A stretch of 64,000 bases of DNA. It comes from Actinomycetospora sp. TBRC 11914 (lineage in GTDB: Bacteria; Actinomycetota; Actinomycetes; Mycobacteriales; Pseudonocardiaceae). Each line of letters opens with the position of its first letter. Within the stretch, counting starts at the first letter, position 1. A model generated the notes under the pieces. That model was not told where the DNA came from. It saw only the letters and a list, made by a program, of their open reading frames with translations, and searched no databases. Shown piece by piece: positions 35,769 through 51,092 of this stretch. Where the stretch lies: assembly GCF_012933465.1 (NCBI RefSeq), contig NZ_JABBND010000001.1:682001-746000 (forward strand). Reading direction: 5' to 3'. The position numbers were made by a program, and so were the translations under genes.

Positions 35769-35926
35769 ACCTCACCCTGCCTTCTCCACGAGCCGTGGAC
35801 TGCCGGCGCCCCCGCCGCGATCGACGATAATCCGGTGCCTCCTGTGCCGCGATGACAAAAACGAACGATCGAACTGATCGTCCGGGTCAAGACTTGTCGC
35901 GTCCCCCACAAGCAACATCGGGTGCC

Positions 35927-36820: not shown

Positions 36821-37785
36821 CCGCCGTCGTGTCCGACCCCCGTACCGCGCGCGCCTACGCCACCTGCGAGGCCATCACCCGGACCCAGGCGCGCAACTTC
36901 CACTACGGCATCCGGCTGCTGCCCCCGGACCGTCGGGCCGCGCTCTGCGCGGTGTACGCGCTCGCGCGCCGCATCGACGACCTCGGCGACGAGCGCGGCG
37001 ACACCGCGGCGAAGCAGGCCGCGCTGGCCGAGCTGCGGGTCCGGCTCGCGACGCTGCGGGACACCGACGACGGTGCCGACGGCGACGACGGCGACCCCGT
37101 CCTGGCCGCGGTCGCCGACGCGTCCCGACGCTTCCCGATCCCGCTCGGCGCGTTCGACGAGCTGGTGGACGGCGTCGAGGCCGACGTCACCGCCGACGAC
37201 GAGCACGCCCGGACCGGGGTCCCCTCGGCGCCGTACCGGACGTTCTCCGACCTGCTCTGGTACTGCCGGTGCGTCGCCGGGTCGGTCGGGCGGCTCTGCC
37301 TCGGGGTGTTCGGCACCCGACCGGGCGCCGACCCCGAGGGACGCGCGCCGCGGCTCGCCGACGCGCTCGGGCTCGCGCTGCAGCAGACGAACATCCTGCG
37401 CGACGTCCGCGAGGACCTCCTCAACGGACGGATCTACCTGCCGACCGCCGAGCTCGAGGCCGCCGGTGTGGTGCTGCGGCTGCGCTCCGACGGTGCCCTC
37501 GACGACCCCGGCGGCGCCCTCGCCGACCTGCTGCGCGACGCCGCCGTCCGGGCCCGCGGGTACTACGACGAGGGCCTGCAGCTGGTGCCGCTGCTCGACC
37601 GGCGCAGCGCGGCCTGCACGACCGCGATGGCCGGCATCTACCGGCGCCTGCTCGACGACATCACCGCCGACCCCCGCGCGGTCTACGACCGGCGCCTGTC
37701 GCTGTCCGCGCCGAAGAAGGCGCTGGTCGCGGTGCGCGCCCTGACCGGCCTGGACGCGGCGGCCGGCCCGGGGAGGCGTCGGTGA
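36817..37785 (+). CDS. hpnD: presqualene diphosphate synthase HpnD
   Basis: A 322-residue enzyme of the same fold: RTQARNFHYGIRLLPPDRRA, YALARRIDDLGDERGD (Asp-rich 1), LLWYCRCVAGSVGRLCLGVF, QQTNILRDVREDLLNGRIYL (Asp-rich 2), RLSLSAPKKALVA. HpnD condenses two farnesyl diphosphates to presqualene diphosphate. GTG 36817 overlaps the hpnC stop (GTGA), so the two are translated together. Confidence 0.94.
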   Translation: MTAVVSDPRTARAYATCEAITRTQARNFHYGIRLLPPDRRAALCAVYALARRIDDLGDERGDTAAKQAALAELRVRLATLRDTDDGADGDDGDPVLAAVADASRRFPIPLGAFDELVDGVEADVTADDEHARTGVPSAPYRTFSDLLWYCRCVAGSVGRLCLGVFGTRPGADPEGRAPRLADALGLALQQTNILRDVREDLLNGRIYLPTAELEAAGVVLRLRSDGALDDPGGALADLLRDAAVRARGYYDEGLQLVPLLDRRSAACTTAMAGIYRRLLDDITADPRAVYDRRLSLSAPKKALVAVRALTGLDAAAGPGRRR

Positions 37786-39176
37786 CGGGCCCGCGGGTCG
37801 CCGTCCTGGGCGGCGGGCTGGCCGGGATCGCCGCCGCCCTGCGCGCCGCCGACTCCGGCGCCGAGGTCACCCTGCTCGAGCGGCGGGCGCGCCTGGGCGG
37901 GCTCGCCGGCTCGTTCCGCCGCGGGGACGCGCACGTCGACACCGGCCAGCACGTGTTCCTGCGCTGCTGCGACGCCTACCGGGGGCTGCTGGACCGGCTC
38001 GGCGTGGCGGGGTCGACGACACTGCAGGAGCGCCTCGACGTGACCGTCCTGCGGCCGGGCCGGCCCCCGGCCCGGCTGCGCCGCGATGCCCCACCCGCCG
38101 TCGTCGGCCGGATCCCGGGCGCCCACCTCGCCCGGGCCCTGCTGCGCTACGACGCCGTGCCCTGGCGGGAGCGGCTCGCCCTGCCCCGCGCCGCGGCCGC
38201 GCTGCGCCGCCTCGACCCGGCCGACCCCGCCGTCGACACCCAGGCGTTCGGGGACTGGCTGCGCCGCCACGGCCAGGGGCCGGCCGCGATCCGCGCGCTG
38301 TGGGACCTCATCGGCACGCCCACGCTCAACGCCGGCGCCGACGAGGCATCGCTCGCGCTCGCCGCGACCGTCTTCCACATCGGGCTGCTCGGCGACGCCG
38401 GCGCCGCCGACATCGGGTGGGCGTCGGTGCCCCTCGGCGAGCTCCACGACACCGCCGCCCGCCGCGCCCTCGAGGCGGCCGGCGTGCGGGTGGCGCTCGC
38501 GACGAAGGTCGGCGACGTGGCCCGCGCCGACGGCGGGTGGCGGGTCGCCGCGACCGGCCGTGACGGGGCCCGGGAGGCCCTCGACGTGGACGCCGTGGTG
38601 TGTGCCCTGCCACCGGAGGCGGCCGCCGCGGTACTGCCGGACCCCGTGCGGACCCCGGTCGCGGCCGCGGCCGACGCGCTCGGCGCGAGCCCGATCGTCG
38701 ACGTCCACCTGGTCTTCGACCGTCCCGTGCTGCCGGTCCCGTTCGCCGCGGGCACCGACACCGAGGTGCAATGGGTGTTCGACCGATCGGGTGCGCACGG
38801 GGCCCTGCCAACGGGCGCACAGTACGTCGTCGTGTCACTGTCGGCCGCCGACGCCTACCTCCCGGTAGGGGCCGAGGCACTCGTCGACCGGTTCACGACC
38901 GAGCTGGGTCGGCTCCTGCCCACCGTGGCCGGGGCGCGACTCCTCGACGGCTTCGTCACCCGGGAACCCCGGGCGACGTTCCGGCCGGCTCCGGGCACCG
39001 CCGCCCACCGCCCGGCCGCCAGGACCGCGCTGCCCGCCCTCGCGCTGGCGGGCGCGTGGACCGACACCGGATGGCCCGCGACGATGGAGGGTGCCGTGCG
39101 CAGTGGAGACGACGCGGCGGCGGTGGTGACCAGTGCCCGGTGGGGTGCCGGCGACCGGACGGGGGCGGCGGCGTGA
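37782..39176 (+). CDS. hpnE: hydroxysqualene dehydroxylase HpnE
   Basis: A 464-residue FAD-dependent amine-oxidase-like protein: VAVLGGGLAGIAAALRAADS (dinucleotide fold), LLERRARLGGLAGSFRRGD, DTGQHVFLRCCDAYRGLLDR, GTPTLNAGADEASLALAA, and near the C-terminus LALAGAWTDTGWPATMEGAV (FAD-binding). HpnE reduces hydroxysqualene to squalene. GTG 37782 overlaps the hpnD stop. The long open frame upstream (from 36663) is a shadow. Confidence 0.93.
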   Translation: MTGPRVAVLGGGLAGIAAALRAADSGAEVTLLERRARLGGLAGSFRRGDAHVDTGQHVFLRCCDAYRGLLDRLGVAGSTTLQERLDVTVLRPGRPPARLRRDAPPAVVGRIPGAHLARALLRYDAVPWRERLALPRAAAALRRLDPADPAVDTQAFGDWLRRHGQGPAAIRALWDLIGTPTLNAGADEASLALAATVFHIGLLGDAGAADIGWASVPLGELHDTAARRALEAAGVRVALATKVGDVARADGGWRVAATGRDGAREALDVDAVVCALPPEAAAAVLPDPVRTPVAAAADALGASPIVDVHLVFDRPVLPVPFAAGTDTEVQWVFDRSGAHGALPTGAQYVVVSLSAADAYLPVGAEALVDRFTTELGRLLPTVAGARLLDGFVTREPRATFRPAPGTAAHRPAARTALPALALAGAWTDTGWPATMEGAVRSGDDAAAVVTSARWGAGDRTGAAA

Positions 39177-40261
39177 CGGCCGCCCCGCGGGAGGACCGCT
39201 CCCGCCAGCGCACCGACCCGACGACGGTCGACGTGGCCGCGGTGCTGCGCCGCTGCCGGGACCTGGTGGACCCGGCGCTGCGGGCCGCGGTCGCCCGCCT
39301 CGACCCGGCCAGCGCCGCGCAGAGCGCCTACCACCTGGGCTGGACCGACCGGGACGGCAACCCCTCGCGCGGCGGGGGCAAGGCGCTCCGGCCCGCGCTG
39401 GCGCTGCTGGCGGCCGAGGCCTGCGGTGCGCCGGCCGCCGTCGCAGTGCCCGGCGGGGCGGCCGTCGAGCTGGTGCACAACTTCTCGCTGCTGCACGACG
39501 ACCTCATCGACGGCGACACCGAGCGCCGCCACCGTCCCACGGTGTGGGCGGTCTGGGGCGCACCGTCCGCGGTCCTCGCCGGCGACGCGATGCTGGCGCT
39601 CGCGCAGGAGGTGCTGCTCGAGGATCCCTCCTCGGGCGCCCCGGCCGCCGCGCTGCTGCTCACCCGCACCGTGCGGGAGCTGGTCGGCGGCCAGGTCGCC
39701 GACGTCGCGTTCGCCGACCGCGACGACGTGGGCGTCGACGAGTGCCTCGCGATGGCCCACGGCAAGACCGGGACGCTGCTCGGCGCGAGCACCGAGGTCG
39801 GCGCCGTCCTCGCCGGGGCCCCGGCGGCCGCGTGCGCCGCGCTGCGCACCTTCGGCGAGCAGCTGGGGCTGGCGTTCCAGCTCGTCGACGACCTGCTCGG
39901 CATCTGGGGCGACCCGTCGGTCACCGGCAAGCCGGTCCTGGCCGACCTGCGGGAGCGCAAGAAGTCCCTGCCGGTCACCTGGGCCGTCGTCCACGGCGGC
40001 GACGCCGGGCGGGACCTGGCGGCCTGGCTCGCGCGTCCCGAGGACGGGGACGACGAACTGACCCTGCGCCGCGGCGCCGCCCTCGTGGAGGCGGGCGGCG
40101 GGCGCGCGTGGGCCGGGGACGAGGCCCGTCGTCGGCTCGCCGCCGCCGAGACCGCCCTCGCGACCCTCGCCGAGCACCTGCCCACCACCGACCCCGCGAC
40201 GACGCGGGCCCGTGCCGAGCTCGTCGCGCTCGGCCGTCACCTCGCCGACCGGGAGGCCTGA
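39173..40261 (+). CDS. polyprenyl (farnesyl/geranylgeranyl) diphosphate synthase
   Basis: A 362-residue trans-prenyltransferase: GGGKALRPALALLAAEA, VELVHNFSLLHDDLIDGDTE (first DDxxD), RRHRPTVWAVWG, GKTGTLLGASTEVGAVLAG, FQLVDDLLGIWGDPSVTGKP (second Asp-rich) and ERKKSLPVTWAVVHG. It should supply farnesyl diphosphate for HpnD; the small residues before the first motif do not allow a firm chain-length call. GTG 39173 overlaps the hpnE stop (GTGA). Confidence 0.92.
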   Translation: MTAAPREDRSRQRTDPTTVDVAAVLRRCRDLVDPALRAAVARLDPASAAQSAYHLGWTDRDGNPSRGGGKALRPALALLAAEACGAPAAVAVPGGAAVELVHNFSLLHDDLIDGDTERRHRPTVWAVWGAPSAVLAGDAMLALAQEVLLEDPSSGAPAAALLLTRTVRELVGGQVADVAFADRDDVGVDECLAMAHGKTGTLLGASTEVGAVLAGAPAAACAALRTFGEQLGLAFQLVDDLLGIWGDPSVTGKPVLADLRERKKSLPVTWAVVHGGDAGRDLAAWLARPEDGDDELTLRRGAALVEAGGGRAWAGDEARRRLAAAETALATLAEHLPTTDPATTRARAELVALGRHLADREA

Positions 40262-40263
40262 GC

Positions 40264-42207
40264 ATGACGCTGTCGGTGCCCGCGACCGACACCACCACCC
40301 GCACCACCCGCACCGTCGAGGAGGCCCTCGACGCCGGGATCGCGCACCTGCGCTCCCGCCAGGACGCCGCCGGGTGGTGGAAGGGCGACCTGGACACCAA
40401 CGTGACCATGGACGCCGAGGACCTCCTCCTGCGGCACGTCCTGGAGATCTCCGACCCGGAGCGCACCGCGGGCGCCGCCCGCTGGATCCGCTCGCAGCAG
40501 CGCGCCGACGGCACGTGGGCCACGTTCGCCGGCGGCCCGGGCGACCTGTCGACGACGGCCGAGGCGTGGGTGGCGCTGCGGCTGGCCGGCGACCACCCGG
40601 GCGCGCCGCACATGCTCTCGGCGGCGGAGTTCGTCCGCGAGCAGGGCGGGGTGGAGCGCACCCGCGTGTTCACCCGCGTCTGGCTGGCGCTCGTCGGGCT
40701 GTGGTCCTGGGACGACCTGCCCGCCATGCCGCCCGAGCTCATCCACCTCCCGCGGTGGTTCCCGCTCAACGTGTCCGACTGGGCGTGCTGGGCCCGCCAG
40801 ACCGTCGTCCCGCTGACGGTCGTGTCGACCCTGCGCCCCTCCCATCCGGTCGACTTCGACATCGCCGAGCTGCGGACCGGGGCCGCGCCCGCGGCGTTCG
40901 ACCCGGTCTGGACCTGGTCGGGCTTCTTCTCCCGCCTCGACGTCGGGCTGCACGCCTACGCCCGCGCCGCCCGCCGCGGCCCGCTGGCGTGGATCCGGCG
41001 CGGCGCGATGCGCAAGGCCGGCGAGTGGATCCTCGCCCGGCAGGAGGCCGACGGCGGGTGGGGCGGCATCCAGCCGCCGTGGGTGTACTCGCTGATGGCG
41101 CTCGTGCTGCTCGGCTACCCCCGCGAGCACCCGTCGGTGGTCGCCGCGATCCGCGGCCTCGACGGGTTCACCCTCACCACCGACTCCCCCGACGGCCCGG
41201 TGATCCGGCTCGAGGCCTGCCAGTCGCCGGTGTGGGACACCTGCCTGGCGGTCAACGCGCTGCACGACGCCCGCGTCCCGGCCGACGACCCGGCCGTCGT
41301 CGCGGGCACCCGCTGGCTGCTCGACGAGCAGGTCACCCTGACCGGCGACTGGGCGGTGCAGCGCCCGACGCTGGCCCCCGGCGGCTGGTCCTTCGAGTTC
41401 GCCAACGACGTCTACCCCGACACCGACGACACCGCCGAGGTCGTGCTCGCGCTGCGCCGGTCCGAGCACGCGGGCCTGTCCGAGGCCGAGCGGGCGGAGC
41501 TGCGTCACGCCGTCGACCGGGGCCTCGACTGGGCGGCCGGCATGGTGTCCGCTGACGGCGGGTGGGGCGCCTTCGACGCCGACAACACCCGCGAGCTGGT
41601 CAACAAGCTCCCGTTCTGCGACTTCGGCGAGGTGATCGACCCGCCGTCGGCGGACGTCACCGCGCACGTGGTGGAGGCGCTCGCCAGCGAAGGGCGCAGC
41701 GGGACGGTCGAATGCCGGCGCGGGGTGCGCTGGCTGCTCGGTGCCCAGGAGGCCGACGGGTCGTGGTTCGGGCGCTGGGGCGCGAACCACCTCTACGGCA
41801 CCGGCGGCGTCGTTCCCGCGCTGGTCGCGGCCGGGATCGACCCGGGGTCGACGCCGATCCGCCGTGCCGTGCGCTGGCTGCACGACCACCAGAACGACGA
41901 CGGCGGGTGGGGCGAGGACCTGCGCTCCTACGTCGACCCGGCGTGGATCGGCCGCGGGGCCTCGACGCCGTCGCAGACCGCGTGGGCGCTGCTCGCGCTG
42001 ATCGCGGCCGGCGACCGGTCGGCGGCCACCGAGCGCGGCGTGCGGTGGCTGGTCGACGCCCAACGCCCCGACGGTGGCTGGGACGAGGAGCAGTTCACCG
42101 GCACCGGCTTCCCCGGCGACTTCTACATCGCCTACCACCTCTACCGGGTCGTGTTCCCGATCTCGGCCCTCGGGCGGTGGGTCCACGGGTGGGACGGCGT
42201 CGCATGA
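40264..42207 (+). CDS. shc: squalene-hopene cyclase
   Basis: A 647-residue class II terpene cyclase. The catalytic DxDD motif is D386-T-D388-D389 in NDVYPDTDDTAEVVL; QW-type repeats are plentiful (QDAAGWWKGDLDTN, QEADGGWGGIQPPWV, ADGGWGAFDADNT, QNDDGGWGEDL, RPDGGWDEEQF). It cyclises squalene to hopene/hopanol at the membrane. ATG 40264 starts 2 nt after the upstream stop, and its own stop overlaps the next start (ATGA). Confidence 0.96.
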   Translation: MTLSVPATDTTTRTTRTVEEALDAGIAHLRSRQDAAGWWKGDLDTNVTMDAEDLLLRHVLEISDPERTAGAARWIRSQQRADGTWATFAGGPGDLSTTAEAWVALRLAGDHPGAPHMLSAAEFVREQGGVERTRVFTRVWLALVGLWSWDDLPAMPPELIHLPRWFPLNVSDWACWARQTVVPLTVVSTLRPSHPVDFDIAELRTGAAPAAFDPVWTWSGFFSRLDVGLHAYARAARRGPLAWIRRGAMRKAGEWILARQEADGGWGGIQPPWVYSLMALVLLGYPREHPSVVAAIRGLDGFTLTTDSPDGPVIRLEACQSPVWDTCLAVNALHDARVPADDPAVVAGTRWLLDEQVTLTGDWAVQRPTLAPGGWSFEFANDVYPDTDDTAEVVLALRRSEHAGLSEAERAELRHAVDRGLDWAAGMVSADGGWGAFDADNTRELVNKLPFCDFGEVIDPPSADVTAHVVEALASEGRSGTVECRRGVRWLLGAQEADGSWFGRWGANHLYGTGGVVPALVAAGIDPGSTPIRRAVRWLHDHQNDDGGWGEDLRSYVDPAWIGRGASTPSQTAWALLALIAAGDRSAATERGVRWLVDAQRPDGGWDEEQFTGTGFPGDFYIAYHLYRVVFPISALGRWVHGWDGVA

Positions 42208-43868
42208 CCGGCACCGGTCCCGTCGTCGCCACGCCGCTCGCGATCGAGCGGCGGGCCCTCGCGGGCGCGGGCGACGTCCGGGTCCCGACGGCGGAGGTGG
42301 TCACCACCGGCTCCGGGCCGCGGCGCTCGGTCGCGGCGGCCCGGGGGCTCGGGGACCGGCCGCGGCTGGTCGCCGGAGTGGCCGGGGCGCTGGCGCGGGG
42401 CCTCGCGCCGGGCGACCTCGTGGTGGCCGACGAGGTCCGCGACCCCGCCGGCCGGTCGGTGCGGGTGGCGAGCGCGCCGCTGCTGGCCGCCGTGCTGCGG
42501 GCGGCCGGGCTGACGGTGCACGTCGGGCCGGTGGTCTCGGCCGAGCGCGTGGTGACCGGGGCGGCCCGGACGGCGCTGGCCTCGGGGCCGCGGGCGAACG
42601 GCGCCGTCCTCGCGTCGGATGGGAGCAATGCGCCATTGCTGGCGCGGGGCGGGGCGGCCCCGACGCGGGTGAACGGCGCCGTCCTCGCGTCGGATGGGAG
42701 CAATGCGCCATTGCTGGCGCACCGGCCACCCCTCGCCGTCGACACCGAATCGGCCTGGCTGGCCCCGGACGACGACGCCGTCCCGTTCGCGGTCGTCCGG
42801 GCCGTCGTCGACACCCCCGACCACCCGCTGGTCCACCCCGGCACCGTCACCCGCGGGATCGCCGCGCTCACCTCGCTGCGTCGCGCCGCCCCCGCCGTCG
42901 CCGCCTGGTGCGCGGCCCTCGGGCCCCGCGAGGTCCTGCTCGCCGAGCCCCGGTCGTTCTGCGCGGGCGTGGACCGGGCCATCGCCACCGTCGAGCAGGC
43001 CCTCGAGCGCCACGGGCCGCCGGTCTACGTGCGGCGCCAGATCGTGCACAACAGCCACGTCGTCGCCGACCTCGAGCGCCGCGGGGCGGTGTTCGTCCAG
43101 GAGGCCGACGAGGTGCCGACGGGCGCGACGCTGGTGCTCGCCGCGCACGGCGTCGCGCCCGCGGTGCGGCGCACCGCCGCCTCGCGCCACCTCACCGTCG
43201 TCGACGCCACCTGTCCGCTGGTGACCAAGGTGCACGCCGGCGTGCGCCGCCAGGCCGACCGCGGCGCCACTGTCTTCCTCATCGGCCACGCCGAGCACGA
43301 GGAGGTCGAGGGCACCGTGGGCGAAGCCGAGGAGGCGCGCGGCACCGTGATCGTCGTGGGCAGCGAGGCGGAGGCCGAGACGGTCACCGCCCCGGACCCC
43401 GGCCGGGTCGCCTCCGCGGTGCAGACCACGCTCGCCGTCGACGAGGCCGAGGCGATCGCGGCGGTGCTGCGCCGCCGGTTCCCCGCGCTGTCCGAGCCCC
43501 GCTCGGCGGACATCTGCTACGCCACCACCAACCGCCAGGCCGCGGTGCGGGCGGTGGCGTCCGAGGCCGACCGGCTCGTCGTCGTCGGCTCGGCGAACTC
43601 CTCGAACTCGGTGCGGCTGGCGGAGGTCGGCGTCCGCGCCGGGACCGACGCCCGCCGCGTCGACCGCCCCGACGAGCTGGACCTGTCCTGGCTCTCCGGG
43701 GCGCGGCGCGTCGCGGTCACCGCGGGCGCCTCGGCTCCCGACCACCTCGTGGACGGCGGGGTCGGCAGCGTCGTCGACCTCCTGCGCGGGCTCGGGCCCG
43801 TGACCGTCACCCCCCGGCCGACCACGACCGAGGACGTCCACTTCACCCTTCCCAAGGAAGTGAGCTGA
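42204..43868 (+). CDS. fusion of hopanoid phosphorylase HpnG and HMB-PP reductase IspH
   Basis: 554 residues in two domains. Residues 1-235 form an HpnG-like nucleoside-phosphorylase fold (PVVATPLAIERRALAGAG, GLAPGDLVVADEV, then AVDTESA matching the usual AVDMES motif), which trims adenosylhopane. Residues 240-554 are a complete IspH: FCAGVDRAI (C253), IVHNSHVV, DATCPLVTKVH (C337), HAEHEEVEGT, ICYATTNRQ (C438) and SANSSNSVRL, i.e. all three Fe-S cysteines. Residues about 130-172 come from a two-unit family C repeat inserted in the HpnG part, giving a twice-repeated NGAVLASDGSNAPLLA. The start overlaps the shc stop. Confidence 0.9.
   Translation: MTGTGPVVATPLAIERRALAGAGDVRVPTAEVVTTGSGPRRSVAAARGLGDRPRLVAGVAGALARGLAPGDLVVADEVRDPAGRSVRVASAPLLAAVLRAAGLTVHVGPVVSAERVVTGAARTALASGPRANGAVLASDGSNAPLLARGGAAPTRVNGAVLASDGSNAPLLAHRPPLAVDTESAWLAPDDDAVPFAVVRAVVDTPDHPLVHPGTVTRGIAALTSLRRAAPAVAAWCAALGPREVLLAEPRSFCAGVDRAIATVEQALERHGPPVYVRRQIVHNSHVVADLERRGAVFVQEADEVPTGATLVLAAHGVAPAVRRTAASRHLTVVDATCPLVTKVHAGVRRQADRGATVFLIGHAEHEEVEGTVGEAEEARGTVIVVGSEAEAETVTAPDPGRVASAVQTTLAVDEAEAIAAVLRRRFPALSEPRSADICYATTNRQAAVRAVASEADRLVVVGSANSSNSVRLAEVGVRAGTDARRVDRPDELDLSWLSGARRVAVTAGASAPDHLVDGGVGSVVDLLRGLGPVTVTPRPTTTEDVHFTLPKEVS
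42590..42720. repeat. family C repeat array inside hpnG-ispH (C2)
   Basis: Two 56-bp units (42590-42645 and 42665-42720; 75 bp apart) are nearly identical and contain the hairpin agcaatg-cgc-cattgct preceded by ggcgccgtcct. They read in frame through the gene. The same motif in reverse forms array C1 at 29191-29329 with the same spacing. Confidence 0.9.
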
Positions 43869-43870
43869 CG

Positions 43871-44887
43871 ATGGGTTTCCCCCTGCGCCAGAGCATCAAG
43901 CTCGGCACCTACCTCATGGAGCAGCGGATCCGGGGGCGGAAGAAGTTCCCCATCCTGGTCGAGCTCGAGCCGCTGTTCGCCTGCAACCTCAAGTGCGCGG
44001 GCTGCGGCAAGATCGCCCAGCCGGCGTCGCTGCTCAAGCAGCGGATGCCGGTCGAGCAGGCGGTCGGCGCCATCGAGGAGGCCGGCGCGCCGATGGTCTC
44101 CATCGCCGGCGGTGAGCCGCTGATGCACCCGCAGATCGACGAGATCGTCCGGCAGCTGCTGGACCGCGGCAAGATCGTCTTCCTCTGCACGAACGCGCTG
44201 CTGCTGCCCAAGCACCTCCACAAGTTCTCGCCGCACAAGAACTTCGCGTGGATGGTGCACATCGACGGGCTGCGCGAGCGCCACGACGCGTCGGTGCGCA
44301 AGGTCGGCGGATTCGACGCCGCCGTCGACGCGATCAAGCAGGCCCAGGCGGCGGGATTCAAGGTCTACACGAACACCACGTTCTTCGACACCGACACCCC
44401 GCAGGACGTCATCGACGTCCTCGACTACCTCAACGACGACCTCGGCGTCGACAACATGCAGATCTCGCCGGCCTACGCCTACGAGCGGGCCCCCGACCAG
44501 GAGCACTGGCTGGGCGTCGACCAGACCCGCGAGCTCTTCCGCAAGGCCTTCGCCGACGGGCGCCGCAAGAAGTGGCGGCTCAACCACTCGCCGCTCTTCC
44601 TCGACTTCCTCGAGGGCAAGCAGGACTTCGACTGCACCGCCTGGGCGATCCCGTCGTACTCCCTGCTCGGGTGGCAGAAGCCCTGCTACCTGCTCGACGA
44701 CGGGTACGTGGCGACGTACCGGGAGCTGATCGAGGAGACCGACTGGGACTCCTACGGCCGGGGCCGCAACTCCAAGTGCGAGAACTGCATGGCCCACTGC
44801 GGGTACGAGCCGTCCGCCGTCTTCGCCACCATGGGGTCACTGCGGGAGTCGATCCGGGCGGCCACGGATACGGTCGGTGTTCGATAA
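43871..44887 (+). CDS. hpnH: adenosyl-hopene transferase HpnH (radical SAM)
   Basis: A 338-residue radical SAM protein. The cluster motif C38-x3-C42-x2-C45 (FACNLKCAGCGK) is followed by SIAGGEPLMHPQID, MVHIDGLRERHDASV and a C-terminal cysteine set (SKCENCMAHCGYEPSA, SPASM-like). HpnH adds the 5'-deoxyadenosyl radical of SAM to hopene to give adenosylhopane, the entry to C35 hopanoids. It starts 2 nt after the upstream stop, the last gene of the operon. A weak CCCCG...CGGGG hairpin lies about 20 bp downstream. Confidence 0.96.
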   Translation: MGFPLRQSIKLGTYLMEQRIRGRKKFPILVELEPLFACNLKCAGCGKIAQPASLLKQRMPVEQAVGAIEEAGAPMVSIAGGEPLMHPQIDEIVRQLLDRGKIVFLCTNALLLPKHLHKFSPHKNFAWMVHIDGLRERHDASVRKVGGFDAAVDAIKQAQAAGFKVYTNTTFFDTDTPQDVIDVLDYLNDDLGVDNMQISPAYAYERAPDQEHWLGVDQTRELFRKAFADGRRKKWRLNHSPLFLDFLEGKQDFDCTAWAIPSYSLLGWQKPCYLLDDGYVATYRELIEETDWDSYGRGRNSKCENCMAHCGYEPSAVFATMGSLRESIRAATDTVGVR

Positions 44888-44989: not shown

Positions 44990-45649
44990 ATGGCGCACCA
45001 CCACGGCACGACGATCCACCTCCCGCACTGGCGGGACATGGCCCGGCACGCCGTGGTGCCGCTGCTCGAGTCGATCCTGATCCCGCTCGGGCTCTTCGCG
45101 CTGCTGCTCCACACCGCGGGCTTCGACGCCGGCCTCTGGGCCGCCCTGGGCTGGTCGGCGCTCGCGGTGCTGGCGCGCCTGCTGTGGCGCCGCGCGCTGC
45201 CGGCGATCCTGCTGATCTCCACGGCGATCCTCGTGGTGCGCACGGTCGTCGGGCTCTGGACCGGCAGCGCGCTGGTGTACTTCCTCGAGCCCTCCGCGCA
45301 GAACTTCATCTTCGCGGCGGCGCTGCTGGTCACGCTGTTCGGCGGCGGGCGACCGCTGCTGGCCCGGCTCGCGGACGACTTCGTGGCGTTCCCGGAGGCG
45401 CTGACCTCGCGACCGAAGGTCCAGCAGTTCTTCCGGCGGGTGTCGCTGCTGTGGGCGCTGGTGTTCCTGATCAACGGCGCCACCACGCTGCTGGCGCTGG
45501 CGGTGGCCACCGTCGAGGCCTACCTGGTGGTGGCCACCGCGGGGTCGTTCGCGCTGGTGGGGGTCGGGATCGCCGTGTCGTTGTGGTGGTTCCGGTCGTC
45601 GCTGGCCGGGGAGGGTGTGCGGCTGCGCTGGGGCCCGGCGACGGCCTGA
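44990..45649 (+). CDS. VC0807-like integral membrane protein
   Basis: A 219-residue protein with a His-rich start (MAHHHGTTIHLPHWRDMAR) and about six membrane helices, among them ESILIPLGLFALLLH, LWAALGWSALAVLARLLW, AILLISTAILVVRTVVGLW and LLWALVFLINGATTLLALAV. The layout, with SAQNFIFAAALLVTLF and two halves each starting with a charged patch, resembles VC0807-type proteins. Function unknown. It follows the hopanoid operon in the same direction after a 102-bp gap and may be independent. Confidence 0.75.
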   Translation: MAHHHGTTIHLPHWRDMARHAVVPLLESILIPLGLFALLLHTAGFDAGLWAALGWSALAVLARLLWRRALPAILLISTAILVVRTVVGLWTGSALVYFLEPSAQNFIFAAALLVTLFGGGRPLLARLADDFVAFPEALTSRPKVQQFFRRVSLLWALVFLINGATTLLALAVATVEAYLVVATAGSFALVGVGIAVSLWWFRSSLAGEGVRLRWGPATA

Positions 45650-45660
45650 GCCCGCGCGCC

Positions 45661-46839
45661 TCAGCCGGCGGCGCCCGCGGTCCGGGCCGCCAGCCCGGCC
45701 AGGGCCGCGTCGAGGTCCCGCGCGGAGAACGCCCGGGCCGCCGCGGCGAGGGTCTCCCGGTGCTCCGGGGCGTCGCGCAGGTCGACGACGGCCGCGGTGA
45801 CGTCGCCCGGGCGCGGGCAGACGACGGCGAGGCCCGCGCGGGCGAGCGCGGCGGCGCCGGCGCGGCCATGGCCGGGCACCGGGGTCGCGAAGAGCACCGG
45901 GCGTCCGACGGCGAGCGCCTCGTTGGCGATCATCCCGCCGCCGGTGGTCAGCACGACGTCGGCCGCGGCCATCTCCGCGGGCACCGCGTCGGTCCAGCCG
46001 AGGGCGCGCAGCCGCGGGTCGTGCCGGGCCTCGAGGCGGGCGCGAAGGGTGGCGTTGCGCCCGCACAGCACGACCGCCCGGACGCCGTCGCCCGCGGCGA
46101 GCACGGCGTCCACCGCGTCCTCGAGCCCGCCGAAGCCCAGCGAGCCGCCGGTGACGAGGACGGTGAGCCCGTCGTGCTCCGGGGCACCGGTCGGGGCGAA
46201 GCGGGGGTCGACGGCCGGCGGGACGACCCGCACGTCCGCGGCGCCCAGCCCGCGGGCCGCGTCGGCGGCCTCGTCGAGCATCACCCAGGTCTCGTCGACG
46301 TCGGGCCAGACCCAGAACGGGTGCACGGCCGGGTCGGTGACGACGGCGACGGTGCGGGCGGTGAGCTCGCCGCGGCGGCGCAGCAGGGCGAGCCCGCCCG
46401 AGGTCACCGGGTAGGTGCACACCACCAGGTCGGGGGCGTGGCGGCGCAGCACCGGGCGCAGCGCGCGGGCGGTGGCCGGCGCGCCGCGGCGCTGGAAGAG
46501 CGCGGCGAGCCGGGGCAGCCGGCCCAGCACGTCGTAGGCGAGGCCGTACAGCGCCGGTCCGGCGCGCATGACGACGCGGTAGGCGTCGGCGAGCAGCCGG
46601 GTACGGCGCGGCCCGCCCGCGACGGTCTCCACCTCGTCGACGACGGCGTCGGGCCAGGCGGCGCGCATCCGGGTCGCGAGCGCCCGCGCGCCGGCGACGT
46701 GGCCCTCGCCCACGGGGGCCGACAGCACCAGCACACGCGAGGGGGTCCGTGGTGACGGAGACGGCGCAGACCGGGTCGACGGGGACGCGACCCACGGCGA
46801 CCAGCGCCGGTGCTCCGACGTCCGCTGCCTCCGGCTCAC
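45661..46839 (-). CDS. MGDG-synthase-like glycosyltransferase
   Basis: A 392-residue GT28/MurG-like glycosyltransferase: RVLVLSAPVGEGHVAGARAL (N-domain acceptor loop), VVCTYPVTSGGLALL, VAVVTDPAVHPFWVWPDVD, LTVLVTGGSLGFGG and VLTTGGGMIANEALAVGRPV (UDP-sugar site). It is a paralogue of the N-half of the divergent gene at 46749. Start GTG 46839 has a leaderless TAGCGT box but overlaps that gene by 91 bp; GTG 46734 would avoid the overlap and begin right at the domain. It probably glycosylates a lipid. Confidence 0.85.
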   Translation of the reverse strand: MSRRQRTSEHRRWSPWVASPSTRSAPSPSPRTPSRVLVLSAPVGEGHVAGARALATRMRAAWPDAVVDEVETVAGGPRRTRLLADAYRVVMRAGPALYGLAYDVLGRLPRLAALFQRRGAPATARALRPVLRRHAPDLVVCTYPVTSGGLALLRRRGELTARTVAVVTDPAVHPFWVWPDVDETWVMLDEAADAARGLGAADVRVVPPAVDPRFAPTGAPEHDGLTVLVTGGSLGFGGLEDAVDAVLAAGDGVRAVVLCGRNATLRARLEARHDPRLRALGWTDAVPAEMAAADVVLTTGGGMIANEALAVGRPVLFATPVPGHGRAGAAALARAGLAVVCPRPGDVTAAVVDLRDAPEHRETLAAAARAFSARDLDAALAGLAARTAGAAG

Positions 46840-49289
46840 CGACGCACGCTAGCGCCACCCGGGGCGGGCGCGCCGCCGGAGCACCCCGCCGGGTGCTCGT
46901 GCTCTCCGGGTCGATCGGGGCCGGGCACCACGCCGCGGCGGCCGCCGTCGCCGAGGCGGTCGGGACGGCGTGGCCCGGGGCCGAGGTGGTGACGAGCGAC
47001 GTCCTCGCCGGGATGGGCGCCGGCGCCCCGCGGACGTTCTCGGACATCTACGCCACCTGCGTGCGGGCGCTGCCGTGGCTCTATGGGCTCTACTACGGGC
47101 TGCTGGTGCACGTCGGGTTCTTCCGCGTGGGGACGCGGGCGGTGCTCGGCCGGTGGAGCGCCCGCTCGATCGCGCCGCTGCTCGCCGCCCACCGGCCCGA
47201 CCTCGTCGTCGCCACCTTCCCCGAAGGAGTTGCGGGGCTCGGTCACCTGCGGCGGACCGGGCGGCTGCCGGCGCGGGCCGTCGTCGTGCTCTCCGACCCC
47301 GCCCCGCAGCCGCTGTGGTGCGACGCCGACCTCGACGCCGTGCTCGTCACCACCGAGGAGGCGGCCCGGCGGGTGCGGCGCTCGGCACCCGGGACGGCGG
47401 TGCGCGTCGTGCGGTGGCCGGTGCGGTCCGGGTTCCGCCCTCCGTCGGGATGTCAGGAAAGTGGCGTTGCAGACACTGGACGTCAGCAACGCCACTTTCC
47501 TGACACCGGGACCGGACGGCTCCGCGTCCTCGTCGCCGCCGGGTCGCTCGGGTTCGGCGACCTCCCCACGGTGGTGAACGCCGTGCTCGCCGCCGGCGCG
47601 GACGCCGTCGTCGCCACCACCGAGGACCACGTCCGCGCCCGGATCGACGCGCTCGCCGCCGCCCGCCCGGGCCGGGTCGAGGTGCACCGCTGGATCGACG
47701 ACCCGGTCACCGCGACGCGCACCGCCGACGTCGTCGTCACCACCGGCGGTGGCGCCAGCGCGTTCGAGGCGCTGGCGTGCGCGCGCCCGCTGCTCGTCGT
47801 CGACCCCATCCCCGGCCACGGCCGCGACAACGCCCGCCTGCTCCACCGCGCCGGACTCGCCCGGCTCTGCCGCGGGCCGAGCGCCCTCACCGCGGCGCTG
47901 CGCCGCCTCGCCGAGCCGGGCGTCCACGCGGCGACGGTCGCGGCCCTGCGCGCCCGACCGGCCGGCGAGGACCTCGCCGACGCCCTCGCCGGGACCGGTC
48001 GCACCACGCGGATGCGCTCCGAGGACGCGCTCTTCTGGCACGCCTCCACCGAGCGGGTCCCCCAGGTGCTCGGCGCCCGGATCACCATCGCGACCCCGCC
48101 CGGCGACACCACCGACTGGCCCGCCCTCGTCGCCGACCGTGTCCGCACCCGGGCCGCCGACATCCCCCTGCTGGCCCGGCGCCTGGAGGACCGCGGCGCC
48201 CTGCGGTGGGTGCCCGCCGTCCCGGACCCGACCCGCCACGTCGACCCCGTCCTGCGCGAGGGCGACGAGGACACCGCGACCACGGCCCACGTCGTCGGCG
48301 CCGCCGTGGATCCCCGCGACGTCGGGTGGTTCCTCACCGTCGCCCGGCACGGCCCCGACCGGGTGTCCGTGCTCGCCGCGGTGCACCACAGCCTCGGGGA
48401 CGGGCTCGCCGTCACCGACGCCCTGGTGCGCCTGTTCTCCGACGAGGCCGCGTCGGTGCCGGTGAGCGGGCGTGGCGGAGACGACGCGGCCCCGGACCGG
48501 GCCTCGCGGCGTGCCCTGGCCCGCCGTCGGGTGGCCGGGATCGCCACGCTCGCCCGCGCCGGGGGTGCCCGCCGCGGCGCCCTCGGCGACCGGGCCCGGG
48601 GCGGCGCCGCGAGCACCCGGATCGTGAGCCGGGTCCGCGACGCCGCCGAGGTCCGCGCCCTGGCGCGGGCCCTGGGGACCAGCACCACCGTCGTCGTCGT
48701 GGCCGCCGTCGCCGAGGCCCTCGCCACGCCGGGCGCCACGACGGTGCGCGCGATGGTGCCGCTCACCGTGCGGCTGCGCGCCGGCGCCGACCACGCGGAC
48801 ACCGGCAACCGCACGGCCGCCGTCGCCGTCGACCTGCCGGTCGCCCCCGGCCCGGTGCGACGGCGGGTGGAGGTGGTCGCGGAGGCCCTGGAGCGCGGCC
48901 GGGCCTCCGGGCAGGCGGAGGGCTCCGCAGCGGTGCTCGCGGTCCTGGGGCGCTTCCCGCGGTGGGCGCAGCGGGTGTTCGCGCGCCTGACCTACGGTGG
49001 CCGGTTCTTCCACCTCATCGTCTCGGTCATGCCGGGCGTGCGGCGCCCGATCCACATCGGCGGCGGCCTGGTGGCCGAGGTCGTGCCGGTGCTGCCGCTG
49101 GCCGAGGGCGTCGGGGTGGCGGTCGGGGCCATCGCGTGGGGCCGCACGCTCGGGCTCGGACTGGCCGTCGACGACGCCGTCCTGGGTGGGTCCGACCTCA
49201 CCGAACGTGTGGACGCGGCGTGGGCGGCACTGATTCGTGAAGCAGGTGTTGCGTCCGAGGAGGAGAATGGTGACCACACGAAGCATTGA
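46749..49289 (+). CDS. fusion of GT28-type glycosyltransferase and WS/DGAT acyltransferase
   Basis: 846 residues. After a Thr/Ala-rich lead, residues ~48-410 are an MGDG-synthase-like glycosyltransferase (RVLVLSGSIGAGHHAAAAAV, VVATFPEGVAGLGHL, VVTTGGGASAFEALACARPL, IPGHGRDNARLL). Residues ~415-840 are a wax-ester synthase/DGAT-type acyltransferase: SEDALFWHASTE at its start, the catalytic HHxxxDG motif as H546-H-SLG-DG, MVPLTVRLRAG, TGNRTAAVAVDLPV and HLIVSVMPGVRRPIHIGGG. Residues ~235-252 (CQESGVADTGRQQRHFPD) come from in-frame repeat B3. GTG 46749 or 46752 follows GAGGGGGT. It likely makes an acylated glycolipid; this is inference. Confidence 0.87.
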   Translation: MVTETAQTGSTGTRPTATSAGAPTSAASGSPTHASATRGGRAAGAPRRVLVLSGSIGAGHHAAAAAVAEAVGTAWPGAEVVTSDVLAGMGAGAPRTFSDIYATCVRALPWLYGLYYGLLVHVGFFRVGTRAVLGRWSARSIAPLLAAHRPDLVVATFPEGVAGLGHLRRTGRLPARAVVVLSDPAPQPLWCDADLDAVLVTTEEAARRVRRSAPGTAVRVVRWPVRSGFRPPSGCQESGVADTGRQQRHFPDTGTGRLRVLVAAGSLGFGDLPTVVNAVLAAGADAVVATTEDHVRARIDALAAARPGRVEVHRWIDDPVTATRTADVVVTTGGGASAFEALACARPLLVVDPIPGHGRDNARLLHRAGLARLCRGPSALTAALRRLAEPGVHAATVAALRARPAGEDLADALAGTGRTTRMRSEDALFWHASTERVPQVLGARITIATPPGDTTDWPALVADRVRTRAADIPLLARRLEDRGALRWVPAVPDPTRHVDPVLREGDEDTATTAHVVGAAVDPRDVGWFLTVARHGPDRVSVLAAVHHSLGDGLAVTDALVRLFSDEAASVPVSGRGGDDAAPDRASRRALARRRVAGIATLARAGGARRGALGDRARGGAASTRIVSRVRDAAEVRALARALGTSTTVVVVAAVAEALATPGATTVRAMVPLTVRLRAGADHADTGNRTAAVAVDLPVAPGPVRRRVEVVAEALERGRASGQAEGSAAVLAVLGRFPRWAQRVFARLTYGGRFFHLIVSVMPGVRRPIHIGGGLVAEVVPVLPLAEGVGVAVGAIAWGRTLGLGLAVDDAVLGGSDLTERVDAAWAALIREAGVASEEENGDHTKH
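46846..46851 (-). promoter_or_regulatory. -10 box for the minus-strand glycosyltransferase
   Basis: On the minus strand TAGCGT is followed by 6 nt and GTG 46839. It lies inside the beginning of the divergent gene. Confidence 0.4.
47451..47505. repeat. palindromic repeat family B inside the GT-acyltransferase gene (B3)
   Basis: Perfect 20-bp arms tgtcaggaaagtggcgttgc (47451-47470) and its complement (47486-47505) with a 15-nt centre containing cactggacgt. The core matches copy B2 at 25745. It is read in frame as codons 235-253 in the inter-lobe linker of the glycosyltransferase, where the divergent paralogue has only a short loop. Confidence 0.92.
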
Positions 49290-49336
49290 CGTGGCCTCGT
49301 GAGGACTGCCCGGGGCCGGCACGGAGGCGTATCGCG

Positions 49337-50296
49337 GTGACCGAAGCCGTCTCGCTGCTGGTCGCCGTCCCCGCCGCGGTCGTCGGAGCCGCCGGGTTCG
49401 GGATGGCCAGCGCCGCGCAGCAGCGCGCCACGCACGAGGTACCGGTGTCGTCGACGCTGAGCCCGCGGCTCGTCGTCGACCTCCTCCGCCATCCGTGGTG
49501 GCTGCTCGGCCTGGTGATGACGGTGCTCGCGCTGTCGATGCAGCTCGTCGCGCTCGCCTTCGGGCCGCTGGCCGTCGTGCAGCCCCTCCTGGTCACCGGC
49601 GTCGTGTTCGCCGGCGTCTTCTCCGCCCTGCTGCACCACCGCACCCCGGACCGGTGGGTGCTCGTCGGCGGCCTGCTGACCGCGGCCGGTCTCGCGGCGT
49701 TCCTGCTGCAGGCCCGGCCGGTCGCCGGGCCGGGCTCGGAGCACCTCGACGTCACCGACTCCGTGCCGTTCCTCGTGACGATCGTGGTGCTGGTGGTCGC
49801 CTGCCTCGTCTTCGCCCGGCTCTCGACCCACCCCCTGCGCATCCTCGCGCTGGCCCTCGCCACCGGCATCCTGTTCGGGATCACCGCGGCGCTGATGAAG
49901 GCCGTGACCACCGCGGTGCGCGGCGGGCTGGGCGAGCTGTTCACCACGCCCGCGCTCTACGCCGCCTGCGTGGTCGGGCCCATGGGCTTCCTGCTCAGCC
50001 AGAACACCTTCCAGCAGGGCCGGCTGGTCTCGCCGTCGGTCGCGGTGATCACCACGGCCGACCCGATCGTCGGGGTCTTCGCCGGCATCGCGTGGCTCGG
50101 CGAGGACCTGGACACGACGGCGCCGCTGCTCGCCGGGCAGGCGCTGGCCGGCGTCGTCGTCCTGCTCGGGATCGCCTTCGTCACCCTGCGCAGCACGATC
50201 CTGCTGCGCCGGGGCGAGGCCCCCGAGGACGCCGCGATCTGGGAGAAGCACGACCCCGCCCCCGAGTCCTCGGCGTCCAGCAGCTGCCCCGGATGA
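49337..50296 (+). CDS. DMT-superfamily (EamA/NIPA-like) transporter
   Basis: A 319-residue membrane protein with about nine or ten helices: VSLLVAVPAAVVGAAGFGMA, LLGLVMTVLALSMQLVALAF, LAVVQPLLVTGVVFAGVFSA, VGPMGFLLSQNTFQQGRL and SPSVAVITTADPIVGVFAGI. This is the EamA/DUF-type DMT pattern, similar to NIPA-like Mg2+ transporters. GTG 49337 is selected by a CGGAGG site 9 nt upstream; the earlier start at 49286 has none. The stop overlaps the SDR start (ATGA). Confidence 0.87.
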   Translation: MTEAVSLLVAVPAAVVGAAGFGMASAAQQRATHEVPVSSTLSPRLVVDLLRHPWWLLGLVMTVLALSMQLVALAFGPLAVVQPLLVTGVVFAGVFSALLHHRTPDRWVLVGGLLTAAGLAAFLLQARPVAGPGSEHLDVTDSVPFLVTIVVLVVACLVFARLSTHPLRILALALATGILFGITAALMKAVTTAVRGGLGELFTTPALYAACVVGPMGFLLSQNTFQQGRLVSPSVAVITTADPIVGVFAGIAWLGEDLDTTAPLLAGQALAGVVVLLGIAFVTLRSTILLRRGEAPEDAAIWEKHDPAPESSASSSCPG

Positions 50297-51039
50297 CGCA
50301 CGGCCCTCAGCGGAGCCGGGTACCCGACGGCGCGCCCGCCCTGGTGACGGGGGCCTCGTCGGGGATCGGGGAGGCGATCGCGCGGCGGCTCGCCGGCCGG
50401 GCGTCGCCGCTGGTCGTGACCGGGCGCGACCCCGGCCGTCTCGACGCGGTGGCCGGCGCGACCGGCGCGCACGGCGTCGTCGCCGACCTCACGACGACGG
50501 CGGGCCGCGCGGCCGTCGTCGCCGCCTGCGGCGCGCACGGGGTGGGGCTGGTGGTGCACGCCGCCGGCGTCGGGGCGGCCGGGCCGTTCTCGGGCGTGGA
50601 CCCCGACACCGTGGACGCGGTGCTCGCCGCCGACCTCGTCGCCCCCGTGCAGCTCACCCGCGCGCTGTGGCCCGACGTCGTGCGGGCCCGGGGCCACGTG
50701 GTGTTCGTGGCGTCGATCGCGGCGCTCGGGGTGGCCGGCGAGGCGACGTACTCGGCGGCCAAGGCCGGCCTGCGGACGTTCGCCGACGCGCTGCGCCTCG
50801 AGGAGCCGGACGTCGGGGTCACCACCGTGCTGCCCGGCGTCGTCGACACCCCGTTCCTGGCGCGGCGGGGCTACGACCGGTCGGTCCCCCGCCCGGTATC
50901 GGCCGACCGGGTCGCGGCGGCGACGCTGCGGGCGGTGGAGCGGGGCCGGGCCGAGGTGTTCGTGCCGCGCTGGCTGCAGGTGGCCTCGGTGGTGCAGGGC
51001 GCGGCGCCGGCGGTGTTCCGGTGGGCTTCGCCCTCGTGA
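50293..51039 (+). CDS. short-chain dehydrogenase/reductase
   Basis: A 248-residue classical SDR: ALVTGASSGIGEAIARRLAG (NADP-binding TGxxxGIG), VVHAAGVGAAGPF (the NNAG equivalent), VFVASIAALGVAGEATYSAA with Y-x3-K (YSAAKAG), and VLPGVVDTPFL. Substrate unknown. It is coupled to the DMT transporter by ATGA. The last codons and stop are provided by repeat A4. Confidence 0.9.
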   Translation: MTHGPQRSRVPDGAPALVTGASSGIGEAIARRLAGRASPLVVTGRDPGRLDAVAGATGAHGVVADLTTTAGRAAVVAACGAHGVGLVVHAAGVGAAGPFSGVDPDTVDAVLAADLVAPVQLTRALWPDVVRARGHVVFVASIAALGVAGEATYSAAKAGLRTFADALRLEEPDVGVTTVLPGVVDTPFLARRGYDRSVPRPVSADRVAAATLRAVERGRAEVFVPRWLQVASVVQGAAPAVFRWASPS

Positions 51040-51092
51040 GCACTAAAGGTCGGTATACCGACATTTAGTGCTCACAAGCGCGCAGCGCACCT
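51020..51092. repeat. palindromic repeat family A, copy A4
   Basis: Inner arms 51036-51052 and 51059-51075 flank gtatac. It contains the stop codons of both the SDR gene (51037-51039) and the convergent dapC gene (51072-51074). Confidence 0.88.

What the first reader, a model, noticed from the sequence alone, without database searches (positions are those of the whole stretch)
46749..49289. Glycosyltransferase fused to a WS/DGAT acyltransferase
One frame encodes a MurG/MGDG-synthase-like glycosyltransferase (about residues 48-410) and a wax-ester/DGAT acyltransferase with an intact HHxxxDG motif (546-552). I do not know this combination from characterised enzymes. Together with the divergent paralogous glycosyltransferase it suggests a two-step route to an acylated glycolipid, perhaps acylated hopanoid or glycosyl diacylglycerol.
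Basis: partly seen in the sequence, partly recalled or inferred. Interest (0 to 1): 0.72.

Follow-up and report, generated by a model that had tools for sequence, protein, structure and literature searches.

The report
Hopanoid-cluster glycosyltransferase–acyltransferase fusion enzyme
One bacterial protein joins a sugar-transferring enzyme to a fatty-acid-transferring enzyme and sits beside the genes for hopanoids (bacterial sterol-like lipids) in many related bacteria, which suggests an undescribed step that decorates these membrane lipids with sugar and fatty acid.

Summary
Confirmed: one unbroken 846-codon frame (46749-49289, +) encodes an MGDG-synthase/MurG-like glycosyltransferase (GT, residues ~46-415) fused to a WS/DGAT-type acyltransferase (AT, ~424-834) with HHSLGDG at 546-552. 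Not an artefact: 22 fused relatives align without a stop, both domains are under purifying selection, and an AlphaFold2 model (pLDDT 83.5) matches MGD1 and WS/DGAT crystal structures.

New here: the fusion belongs to hopanoid gene clusters. In 100 Pseudonocardiaceae genomes, 34 carry an unbroken junction (16 genera); 33 of these have a strong squalene-hopene cyclase (Fisher p 1.9e-16), in 32 of 33 at 4-10 kb, in rearranged orders. One genome of another family has the same arrangement. Where the intact fusion is missing, the AT still sits in the hopanoid cluster: in one genus with a decayed GT, in another fused to PAP2.

Most likely the enzyme glycosylates and acylates a hopanoid, giving an acylated glyco-hopanoid, a bacterial counterpart of acyl steryl glycosides. 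The product is inferred; I found no chemistry. New variant of known domain families.

The parts
46749..49289 (+). GT::AT fusion gene, 846 aa
46884..47993 (+). GT domain, residues ~46-415, MGDG-synthase/MurG-like (GT-B fold)
48018..49286 (+). AT domain, residues ~424-846, WS/DGAT-type
48384..48404 (+). HHSLGDG acyltransferase motif (residues 546-552)
   Evidence: read from the sequence; full HHxxxDG in 21 of 22, second His in 22 of 22
47451..47505 (+). In-frame palindrome (20-bp perfect arms, 15-bp loop) encoding residues ~235-253 between the two GT lobes; low confidence (pLDDT < 50) in the model at 235-254
45661..46839 (-). Divergent paralogous GT (392 aa as listed; start uncertain, overlaps the fusion's 5' end); among 22 mapped loci only in Actinomycetospora and one other genus
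44990..45649 (+). VC0807-family membrane protein; in the same 5 of 18 genus genomes as the fusion
   Evidence: NF041646 94.5 bits, cut-off 65
49286..50296 (+). DMT-family transporter (true start probably some 50 bases inside); in 21 of 22 mapped fusion loci
   Evidence: NF038012 106.9 bits, cut-off 50
50293..51039 (+). Short-chain dehydrogenase/reductase; in 21 of 22 mapped fusion loci
   Evidence: PF00106 E 1e-30
35852..36820 (+). HpnC, squalene synthase
   Evidence: TIGR03464 251.8 bits, cut-off 250.45
36817..37785 (+). HpnD-like presqualene diphosphate synthase
   Evidence: TIGR03465 258.8 bits, best match but below cut-off 278.6
37794..39176 (+). HpnE, hydroxysqualene dehydroxylase (start approximate)
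   Evidence: TIGR03467 390.8 bits, cut-off 283.05
39320..40261 (+). Polyprenyl diphosphate synthase (start approximate)
   Evidence: PF00348 E 4.5e-53
40318..42207 (+). Squalene-hopene cyclase (start approximate)
   Evidence: TIGR01507 693.4 bits, cut-off 431.1
42147..43868 (+). HpnG-like phosphorylase and IspH in one open frame (start approximate)
   Evidence: TIGR00216 282.6 bits, cut-off 187.85; TIGR03468 49.6 bits, below cut-off 187.1
43871..44887 (+). HpnH, adenosyl-hopene transferase (radical SAM)
   Evidence: TIGR03470 499.6 bits, cut-off 225.05 (searched from 43880); start read

Best explanation
A bifunctional tailoring enzyme of hopanoid biosynthesis. SHOWN by sequence: one polypeptide with a GT-B glycosyltransferase of the MGDG-synthase/MurG kind and a WS/DGAT-type acyltransferase with its HHxxxDG motif, linked by gene neighbourhood and co-occurrence to the hopanoid genes HpnC/D/E-SHC-HpnG/H. 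[quoted passage not shown] The result would be an O-acylated glyco-hopanoid, analogous to acyl steryl glycosides. The DMT transporter, which tends to go with the GT, may move the glycoside across the membrane; the SDR, which tends to go with the AT and hopanoid genes, may reduce the opened ribosyl group. In one genus the GT has decayed while the AT stays, so acylation is the more constant step. Likelihoods: hopanoid-dedicated enzyme about 0.7; acylated glyco-hopanoid as the product about 0.5.
For: (1) Genus: of 18 Actinomycetospora genomes the same five have the fusion, the VC0807 protein and squalene-hopene cyclase; the other 13 have none of the three (three of the 18 are under 90% complete). 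(2) Family: of 100 genomes 34 have an unbroken junction and 43 a strong SHC (E < 1e-100); 33 have both (Fisher p 1.9e-16). At the looser tool threshold (E <= 1e-10, 65 genomes, which takes in weak cyclase-like matches) all 34 have a match (p 6.5e-9). In 32 of 33 both are on one contig, 4.0-9.9 kb between match starts; the 33rd is on small fragments. (3) Orders and orientations differ among the 22 mapped loci, yet DMT (21 of 22), SDR (21 of 22) and SHC (21 of 22) stay with the fusion. (4) A genome of another family, G325, has the same arrangement. (5) Of the ten SHC genomes without an intact fusion, three (one genus) keep the AT in the hopanoid cluster with a remnant GT; three (another genus) have a PAP2_3::AT fusion there; three have an SHC without hpn hits in 18-19 kb; one contig is too short to tell. 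(6) Catalytic motifs conserved; dN/dS 0.14-0.31 (GT) and 0.23-0.42 (AT) in four pairs. (7) Fold and profile matches on both halves.
Against: No product, substrate or expression data. GT relatives with known function act on diacylglycerol or lipid II. The AT is far below the curated WS/DGAT cut-off, and the Asn-Asp and NVPGP-like motifs of classical enzymes (motifs recalled) read TT and SVMPG in the window. The best structural match to the AT is tied with a condensation-superfamily dehydratase, 8s6l, so the fold does not fix the reaction. One genome (G102) has the fusion without a strong SHC. Genomes are related and the genes are linked, so the p values overstate independence; the 1e-100 line for SHC was drawn after seeing the gap between 3e-113 and 3e-55. 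The GT-less genus shows that a sugar is not always needed, and in genus g27 the GT sits away from the hopanoid genes. Three of four PAP2_3::AT relatives outside the family show no hopanoid genes in the 8-11 kb fetched, so this wider AT group is not hopanoid-only.
Confidence: 0.55

Rival explanations
1. The fusion makes an acylated glycosyl-diacylglycerol (or another polar glycolipid) and lies with hopanoid genes because both remodel the same membrane, not because hopanoids are its substrate.
For: Nearest characterised GTs are MGD1 and processive diacylglycerol glucosyltransferases. G102 carries the fusion without a strong SHC. In g27 a GT of this clade lies away from the hopanoid genes.
Against: 33 of 34 fusion genomes have a strong SHC and 32 of 33 are within 10 kb in rearranged orders; a general glycolipid enzyme should occur in many genomes without hopanoids. 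In one genus the AT stays beside hopanoid genes after the GT decayed.
Confidence: 0.2
2. Two separate jobs in one chain: the AT esterifies hopanoids directly, while the GT (with the DMT transporter) acts on another lipid; the fusion only co-localises or co-regulates them.
For: AT with a remnant GT stays in the hopanoid cluster in genus g25 (3 of 3 sampled), with the SDR but with no DMT hit; in g27 (3 of 3) the AT of the hopanoid cluster is fused to PAP2_3 and a GT of this clade lies elsewhere beside a DMT transporter. So GT goes with DMT, and AT with the hopanoid genes. (Odds raised from 0.15 and the diacylglycerol rival lowered from 0.22 after the DMT check.)
Against: The fused frame is kept in 16 sampled genera and the 22 fused ATs form one clade (100/100), which favours coupled steps. 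L081 has an intact fusion without a DMT hit.
Confidence: 0.17
3. The AT is catalytically dead or does a different reaction of the condensation superfamily (for example binding, dehydration or another acyl transfer).
For: TIGR02946 100.7 bits against cut-off 309.95; PF03007 not matched in the window; classical secondary motifs changed; the structural match to AzeD dehydratase is tied with WS/DGAT.
Against: Second His, Asp and Gly of the motif invariant in 22 of 22 and full HHxxxDG in 21 of 22; purifying selection.
Confidence: 0.06
4. Artefact: two proteins read as one through a sequencing or frame error.
For: None found.
Against: Unbroken junction in independent genomes of 16 genera and in one genome of a second family; border start codon not conserved.
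Confidence: 0.02

Closest known systems
Plant MGDG synthase MGD1 (PDB 4wyi/4x1t) and bacterial processive diacylglycerol glucosyltransferases (9wde; NF010135)
   Different: No fused acyltransferase in these chains; far below the NF010135 equivalog cut-off (59.6 against 500); genes of hopanoid synthesis next door
WS/DGAT wax ester synthases (Marinobacter 6chj, Acinetobacter AbWSD1 7nxg; TIGR02946)
   Different: TIGR02946 score a third of its cut-off; separate clade from the 17 stand-alone WS/DGATs of Actinomycetospora that I put in the tree (100/100); secondary motifs changed; fused behind a GT
PAP2_3::WS/DGAT fusions: beside hopanoid genes in genus g27 (L101-L103) and in G135 (L106); also in G153, G169, G354 (L109, L110, L108) without hopanoid genes in the fetched 8-11 kb
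   Same: Related AT; in g27 it is sister to the GT-fused ATs (98/94) and sits at the hopanoid cluster
   Different: Partner domain is a PAP2-superfamily membrane domain instead of a GT; not confined to hopanoid loci
Known hopanoid tailoring: HpnI/HpnK/HpnJ (BHT N-acetylglucosamine to cyclitol ether; PMC12583986, passage seen) and N-acyl-glucosaminyl BHT of Alicyclobacillus (PMC8537080, passage seen)
   Same: Sugar, and in Alicyclobacillus also a fatty acyl group, on the hopanoid side chain
   Different: HpnI is, from recall, a different (GT2-type) glycosyltransferase; the N-acyl link is an amide. The listings (titles and abstract starts) name no hopanoid acyltransferase
Acyl steryl glycosides of plants, Helicobacter and Borrelia (recalled)
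   Same: Idea of a sugar plus fatty acid on a sterol-like lipid
   Different: Sterol substrate, unrelated enzymes; analogy only

Membership tests
WS/DGAT (wax ester synthase/diacylglycerol acyltransferase) | HHxxxDG active-site motif | tested here: met
   HHSLGDG 546-552; 21 of 22 fused relatives full motif, 22 of 22 second His
WS/DGAT (wax ester synthase/diacylglycerol acyltransferase) | WS_DGAT_C (PF06974) above gathering score | tested here: met
   42.4 against 20.7 bits; all 22 members match at E<=1e-3
WS/DGAT (wax ester synthase/diacylglycerol acyltransferase) | PF03007 catalytic-domain profile | tested here: not met
   No hit in the window protein; 17 of 22 members match at E<=1e-3
WS/DGAT (wax ester synthase/diacylglycerol acyltransferase) | TIGR02946 curated subfamily cut-off | tested here: not met
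   100.7 against 309.95 bits. So filed as WS/DGAT-type, not as a wax ester synthase
WS/DGAT (wax ester synthase/diacylglycerol acyltransferase) | Fold | tested here: met
WS/DGAT (wax ester synthase/diacylglycerol acyltransferase) | Acyl-CoA: alcohol or diacylglycerol acyltransferase activity | not testable with these tools
   Needs enzyme assay
MGDG-synthase/MurG-like (GT28) glycosyltransferase | MGDG_synth (PF06925) above gathering score | tested here: met
   41.2 against 25 bits; 22 of 22 members match at E<=1e-3
MGDG-synthase/MurG-like (GT28) glycosyltransferase | Glyco_tran_28_C (PF04101) above gathering score | tested here: not met
   21.4 against 22 bits in the window; 20 of 22 members match at E<=1e-3; fold of this lobe agrees
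MGDG-synthase/MurG-like (GT28) glycosyltransferase | Diglucosyl-diacylglycerol synthase equivalog NF010135 | tested here: not met
   59.6 against 500 bits
Hopanoid biosynthesis gene cluster component | Physical linkage to SHC and hpn genes, conserved across taxa | tested here: met
   32 of 33 genomes within 10 kb; 21 of 22 mapped loci; one genome of another family
Hopanoid biosynthesis gene cluster component | Hopanoid as substrate or product | not testable with these tools
   No lipid data found in the library searches made

The most novel reading that the evidence does not exclude
Pseudonocardiaceae and at least one other actinobacterial family make an undescribed lipid class, O-acylated glyco-hopanoids, by a single bifunctional glycosyltransferase-acyltransferase. 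The acyltransferase would be the first hopanoid O-acyltransferase, and its partner domain has been swapped (GT, decayed GT, PAP2) in different genera.
Probability: 0.45. Interest if true: 0.75.

Novelty: new variant of a known kind. Interest (0 to 1): 0.62.

Why it matters
Hopanoids are used as molecular fossils and as bacterial stand-ins for sterols, but the enzymes that decorate them are known mainly from proteobacteria (recalled). A conserved, uncharacterised tailoring cassette (GT::AT, DMT transporter, SDR) in an actinobacterial family predicts a lipid class that intact-lipid methods could look for and gives a defined gene to delete. Such esters could be lost in saponifying work-ups, which might explain why I found none described (inference). 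The SDR, present in 21 of 22 mapped loci, is also a candidate for the step from ribosylhopane to bacteriohopanetetrol, whose enzyme PMC12583986 (passage seen) calls not yet established.

Tried and rejected
Artefact or two proteins: rejected on conservation and non-conserved border start codon. Paralogous GT as an essential second step: rejected as general (6 of 22). Search for the fusion outside the family: the junction of the window protein in 246 class genomes at E<=1e-12 was found only in the own genome (at most 16 candidates scored per genome). A 22-row profile of the junction matched 151 of 246, but in the printed list, which was cut, only the own genome and G325 span GT and AT; most others match one half. 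At most 11 candidates were scored per genome, so this is a lower bound. I fetched five of the next-best matches that cover the AT part (G135, G153, G166, G169, G354): none has a GT hit; four are PAP2_3::WS/DGAT fusions and one (G166) is a plain WS/DGAT. Whole-protein searches of 120-300 family genomes failed on the server. Literature: in the open PMC library listed no paper whose title or abstract start names a hopanoid acyltransferase or this fusion; others (11 papers holding all four words; 10 of 88 listed) were seen as listings only. Passages were read from PMC8537080, PMC4210621 (a hopanoid cluster predicted in Kutzneria, no detail) and PMC12583986. The Foldseek search itself never ran; only the VIA-align second look was obtained. 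Names of the unnamed G genomes (genera, the second family) could not be had.
Full report
OBSERVATION. ORF 46749-49289 (+) is one unbroken frame of 846 aa. Pfam finds MGDG_synth (60-211) and WS_DGAT_C (686-812) above their cut-offs and Glyco_tran_28_C just below; the catalytic WS/DGAT model PF03007 is not matched. TIGR02946 covers 424-828 (E 9e-29) but at 100.7 bits against a cut-off of 309.95, and the GT half matches diglucosyl-diacylglycerol synthase models weakly. HHSLGDG stands at residues 546-552.

SURROUNDINGS. Upstream on the same strand is a hopanoid cluster: HpnC, an HpnD-like enzyme (best match, below cut-off), HpnE, a prenyl diphosphate synthase, squalene-hopene cyclase, an HpnG-like phosphorylase in one frame with IspH, and HpnH. 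Then come a VC0807-family membrane protein, the divergent paralogous GT, the fusion, a DMT transporter and an SDR. DapC on the other strand looks like ordinary neighbouring chromosome.

CO-OCCURRENCE. In 18 genus genomes the fusion, the VC0807 protein and squalene-hopene cyclase are in the same five genomes and in none of the other 13; three of the 18 are under 90% complete. In a sample of 100 family genomes I counted as fusion an unbroken match crossing the junction: 34 genomes in 16 of 46 genera. I left out G107 and G080 (a stop in the match) and G043 (match does not reach the AT). The whole AT was checked in 20 of the 34 (three Actinomycetospora and 17 others); the other 14 rest on the junction match and an open frame of 800 aa or more. 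SHC with E below 1e-100: 43 genomes; this line falls in a gap between 3e-113 and 3e-55 and was drawn after seeing the list. Both: 33; fusion only: 1 (G102, which has a weak match, E 3e-21); SHC only: 10; neither: 56; Fisher p 1.9e-16. At the tool's own threshold (E <= 1e-10, 65 genomes) all 34 fusion genomes have a match, p 6.5e-9. Genomes are related and the genes are linked, so these p values overstate independence; the better argument is that linkage survives rearrangement. In 32 of 33 genomes fusion and SHC are on one contig with match starts 4.0-9.9 kb apart; in G064 they are on two small fragments. I mapped 22 loci in detail (17 of the 31 non-Actinomycetospora fusions of the sample, and five Actinomycetospora): SHC 21 of 22, DMT 21 of 22, SDR 21 of 22, VC0807 12 of 22 (one of them split over two frames), separate paralogous GT 6 of 22. 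In five loci the GT half of the fusion scored slightly better against the paralog than against the fused GT of the window.

THE EXCEPTIONS ARE INFORMATIVE. Around the ten SHC-only genomes: three of genus g25 have the AT in the hopanoid cluster behind a remnant GT (125, 139 and 247 residues before the AT, starts uncertain) that matches no GT Pfam model, with the SDR but no DMT hit. Three of genus g27 have an AT fused to a PAP2_3 domain at the cluster, and a GT of this clade with a DMT transporter elsewhere. Three (g43 twice, g32) have an SHC without HpnC/D/E/H hits in the 18-19 kb fetched. G028 has only a 6.9-kb contig. So 39 of the 40 SHC genomes left after setting those three aside have an AT of this kind, in 38 of them on the SHC contig and within the region; G028 cannot be judged. 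In trees the 22 fused ATs form one clade against 17 stand-alone WS/DGATs (100/100); with the exceptions added, the g25 ATs nest inside the fused clade (GT decay) and the g27 ATs are its sister (98/94). The fused GTs are not one clade: an unfused Actinomycetospora paralog group and the g27 GTs fall among them, which fits one fusion and later losses but does not prove it. GT tends to travel with DMT, AT with SDR and the hopanoid genes; L081 (intact fusion, no DMT hit) is a counter-example.

BEYOND THE FAMILY. Of 246 class genomes the profile search listed one more spanning fusion, G325 of another family. Its neighbourhood is fusion, DMT, SDR and, on the other strand, HpnH, HpnG-IspH, SHC, prenyl synthase, HpnE, HpnD, HpnC, with HHCAGDG kept. 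The search scored at most 11 candidates per genome and its list was cut, so the true spread is unknown. Of five further AT matches that I fetched, four are PAP2_3::AT fusions (G135, G153, G169, G354); one of these, in G135, lies beside two HpnC/D-type squalene-synthase genes, and three show no hopanoid genes in the 8-11 kb fetched; G166 is a plain WS/DGAT. The AT therefore belongs to a wider, partly hopanoid-linked group, of which the GT-fused clade is the strictly hopanoid-linked branch in this sample.

MECHANISM. Shown: one polypeptide, two enzyme folds, conserved motifs, hopanoid linkage. Inferred: nucleotide-sugar to a hopanoid side-chain hydroxyl, then acyl-CoA to a hydroxyl of the sugar or the side chain. 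The AT is the constant part, the GT the usual but dispensable partner. Known hopanoid chemistry makes such products plausible: N-acyl-glucosaminyl bacteriohopanetetrol in Alicyclobacillus and acylated side chains 'in some species' (PMC8537080, passages), glycosylation by HpnI (PMC12583986, passage). In the open library my searches listed no paper whose title or abstract start names a hopanoid acyltransferase or this fusion.

VERDICT.

Noticed in passing
window 47451-47505; L009 6650-6702; L010 6582-6623: Three Actinomycetospora species have a long perfect palindrome (arms 20, 21, 18 bp) inside the coding frame at the same linker of the GT, with different arm sequences but full pairing; in the window the encoded peptide is of low model confidence. 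The other two species show none there. It resembles protein-coding palindromic elements (recalled: Rickettsia RPE). The window's arm has five further matches at four other places of the genome (up to 2 mismatches) and, with up to 3 mismatches, at two intergenic places of the window.
   Followed up: partly
window 42596-42720: A 50-bp exact direct repeat, starts 75 bp apart, inside the HpnG-like part; each copy holds a short palindrome (AGCAATG CGC CATTGCT) within the frame.
   Followed up: no
window 42147-43868; L009, L010, L011, L071, L078-L080, L082, L095, L101-L103: HpnG-like phosphorylase and IspH lie in one open frame (e.g. L071, 503 aa), a second apparent fusion in these hopanoid clusters.
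   Followed up: partly
window 50293-51039: The SDR is in 21 of 22 mapped fusion loci and stays in g25 where GT and DMT are gone; a candidate for the unestablished ribosylhopane-to-bacteriohopanetetrol step (PMC12583986 passage).
   Followed up: partly
L101 621-2630; L102 825-2885; L103 16394-18394 (-); L106 3874-6975 (-): PAP2_3::WS/DGAT fusions beside hopanoid genes (genus g27; G135 of another family next to two squalene-synthase genes); similar fusions in L108, L109, L110 without hopanoid genes in the fetched stretch, two of them next to a DMT-like transporter.
   Followed up: partly
window 51036-51075; L009 10216-10257: Palindromes after the SDR with the same outer end (GTGAGCACTAA) and different inner arms that still pair (one mismatch in the window); possibly terminators.
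   Followed up: no
G000:C6:26384-28853 (L032, L046): A second divergent pair of unfused GTs of this superfamily elsewhere in the genome, also in six other genus genomes (G002, G005, G006, G009, G013, G017).
   Followed up: partly
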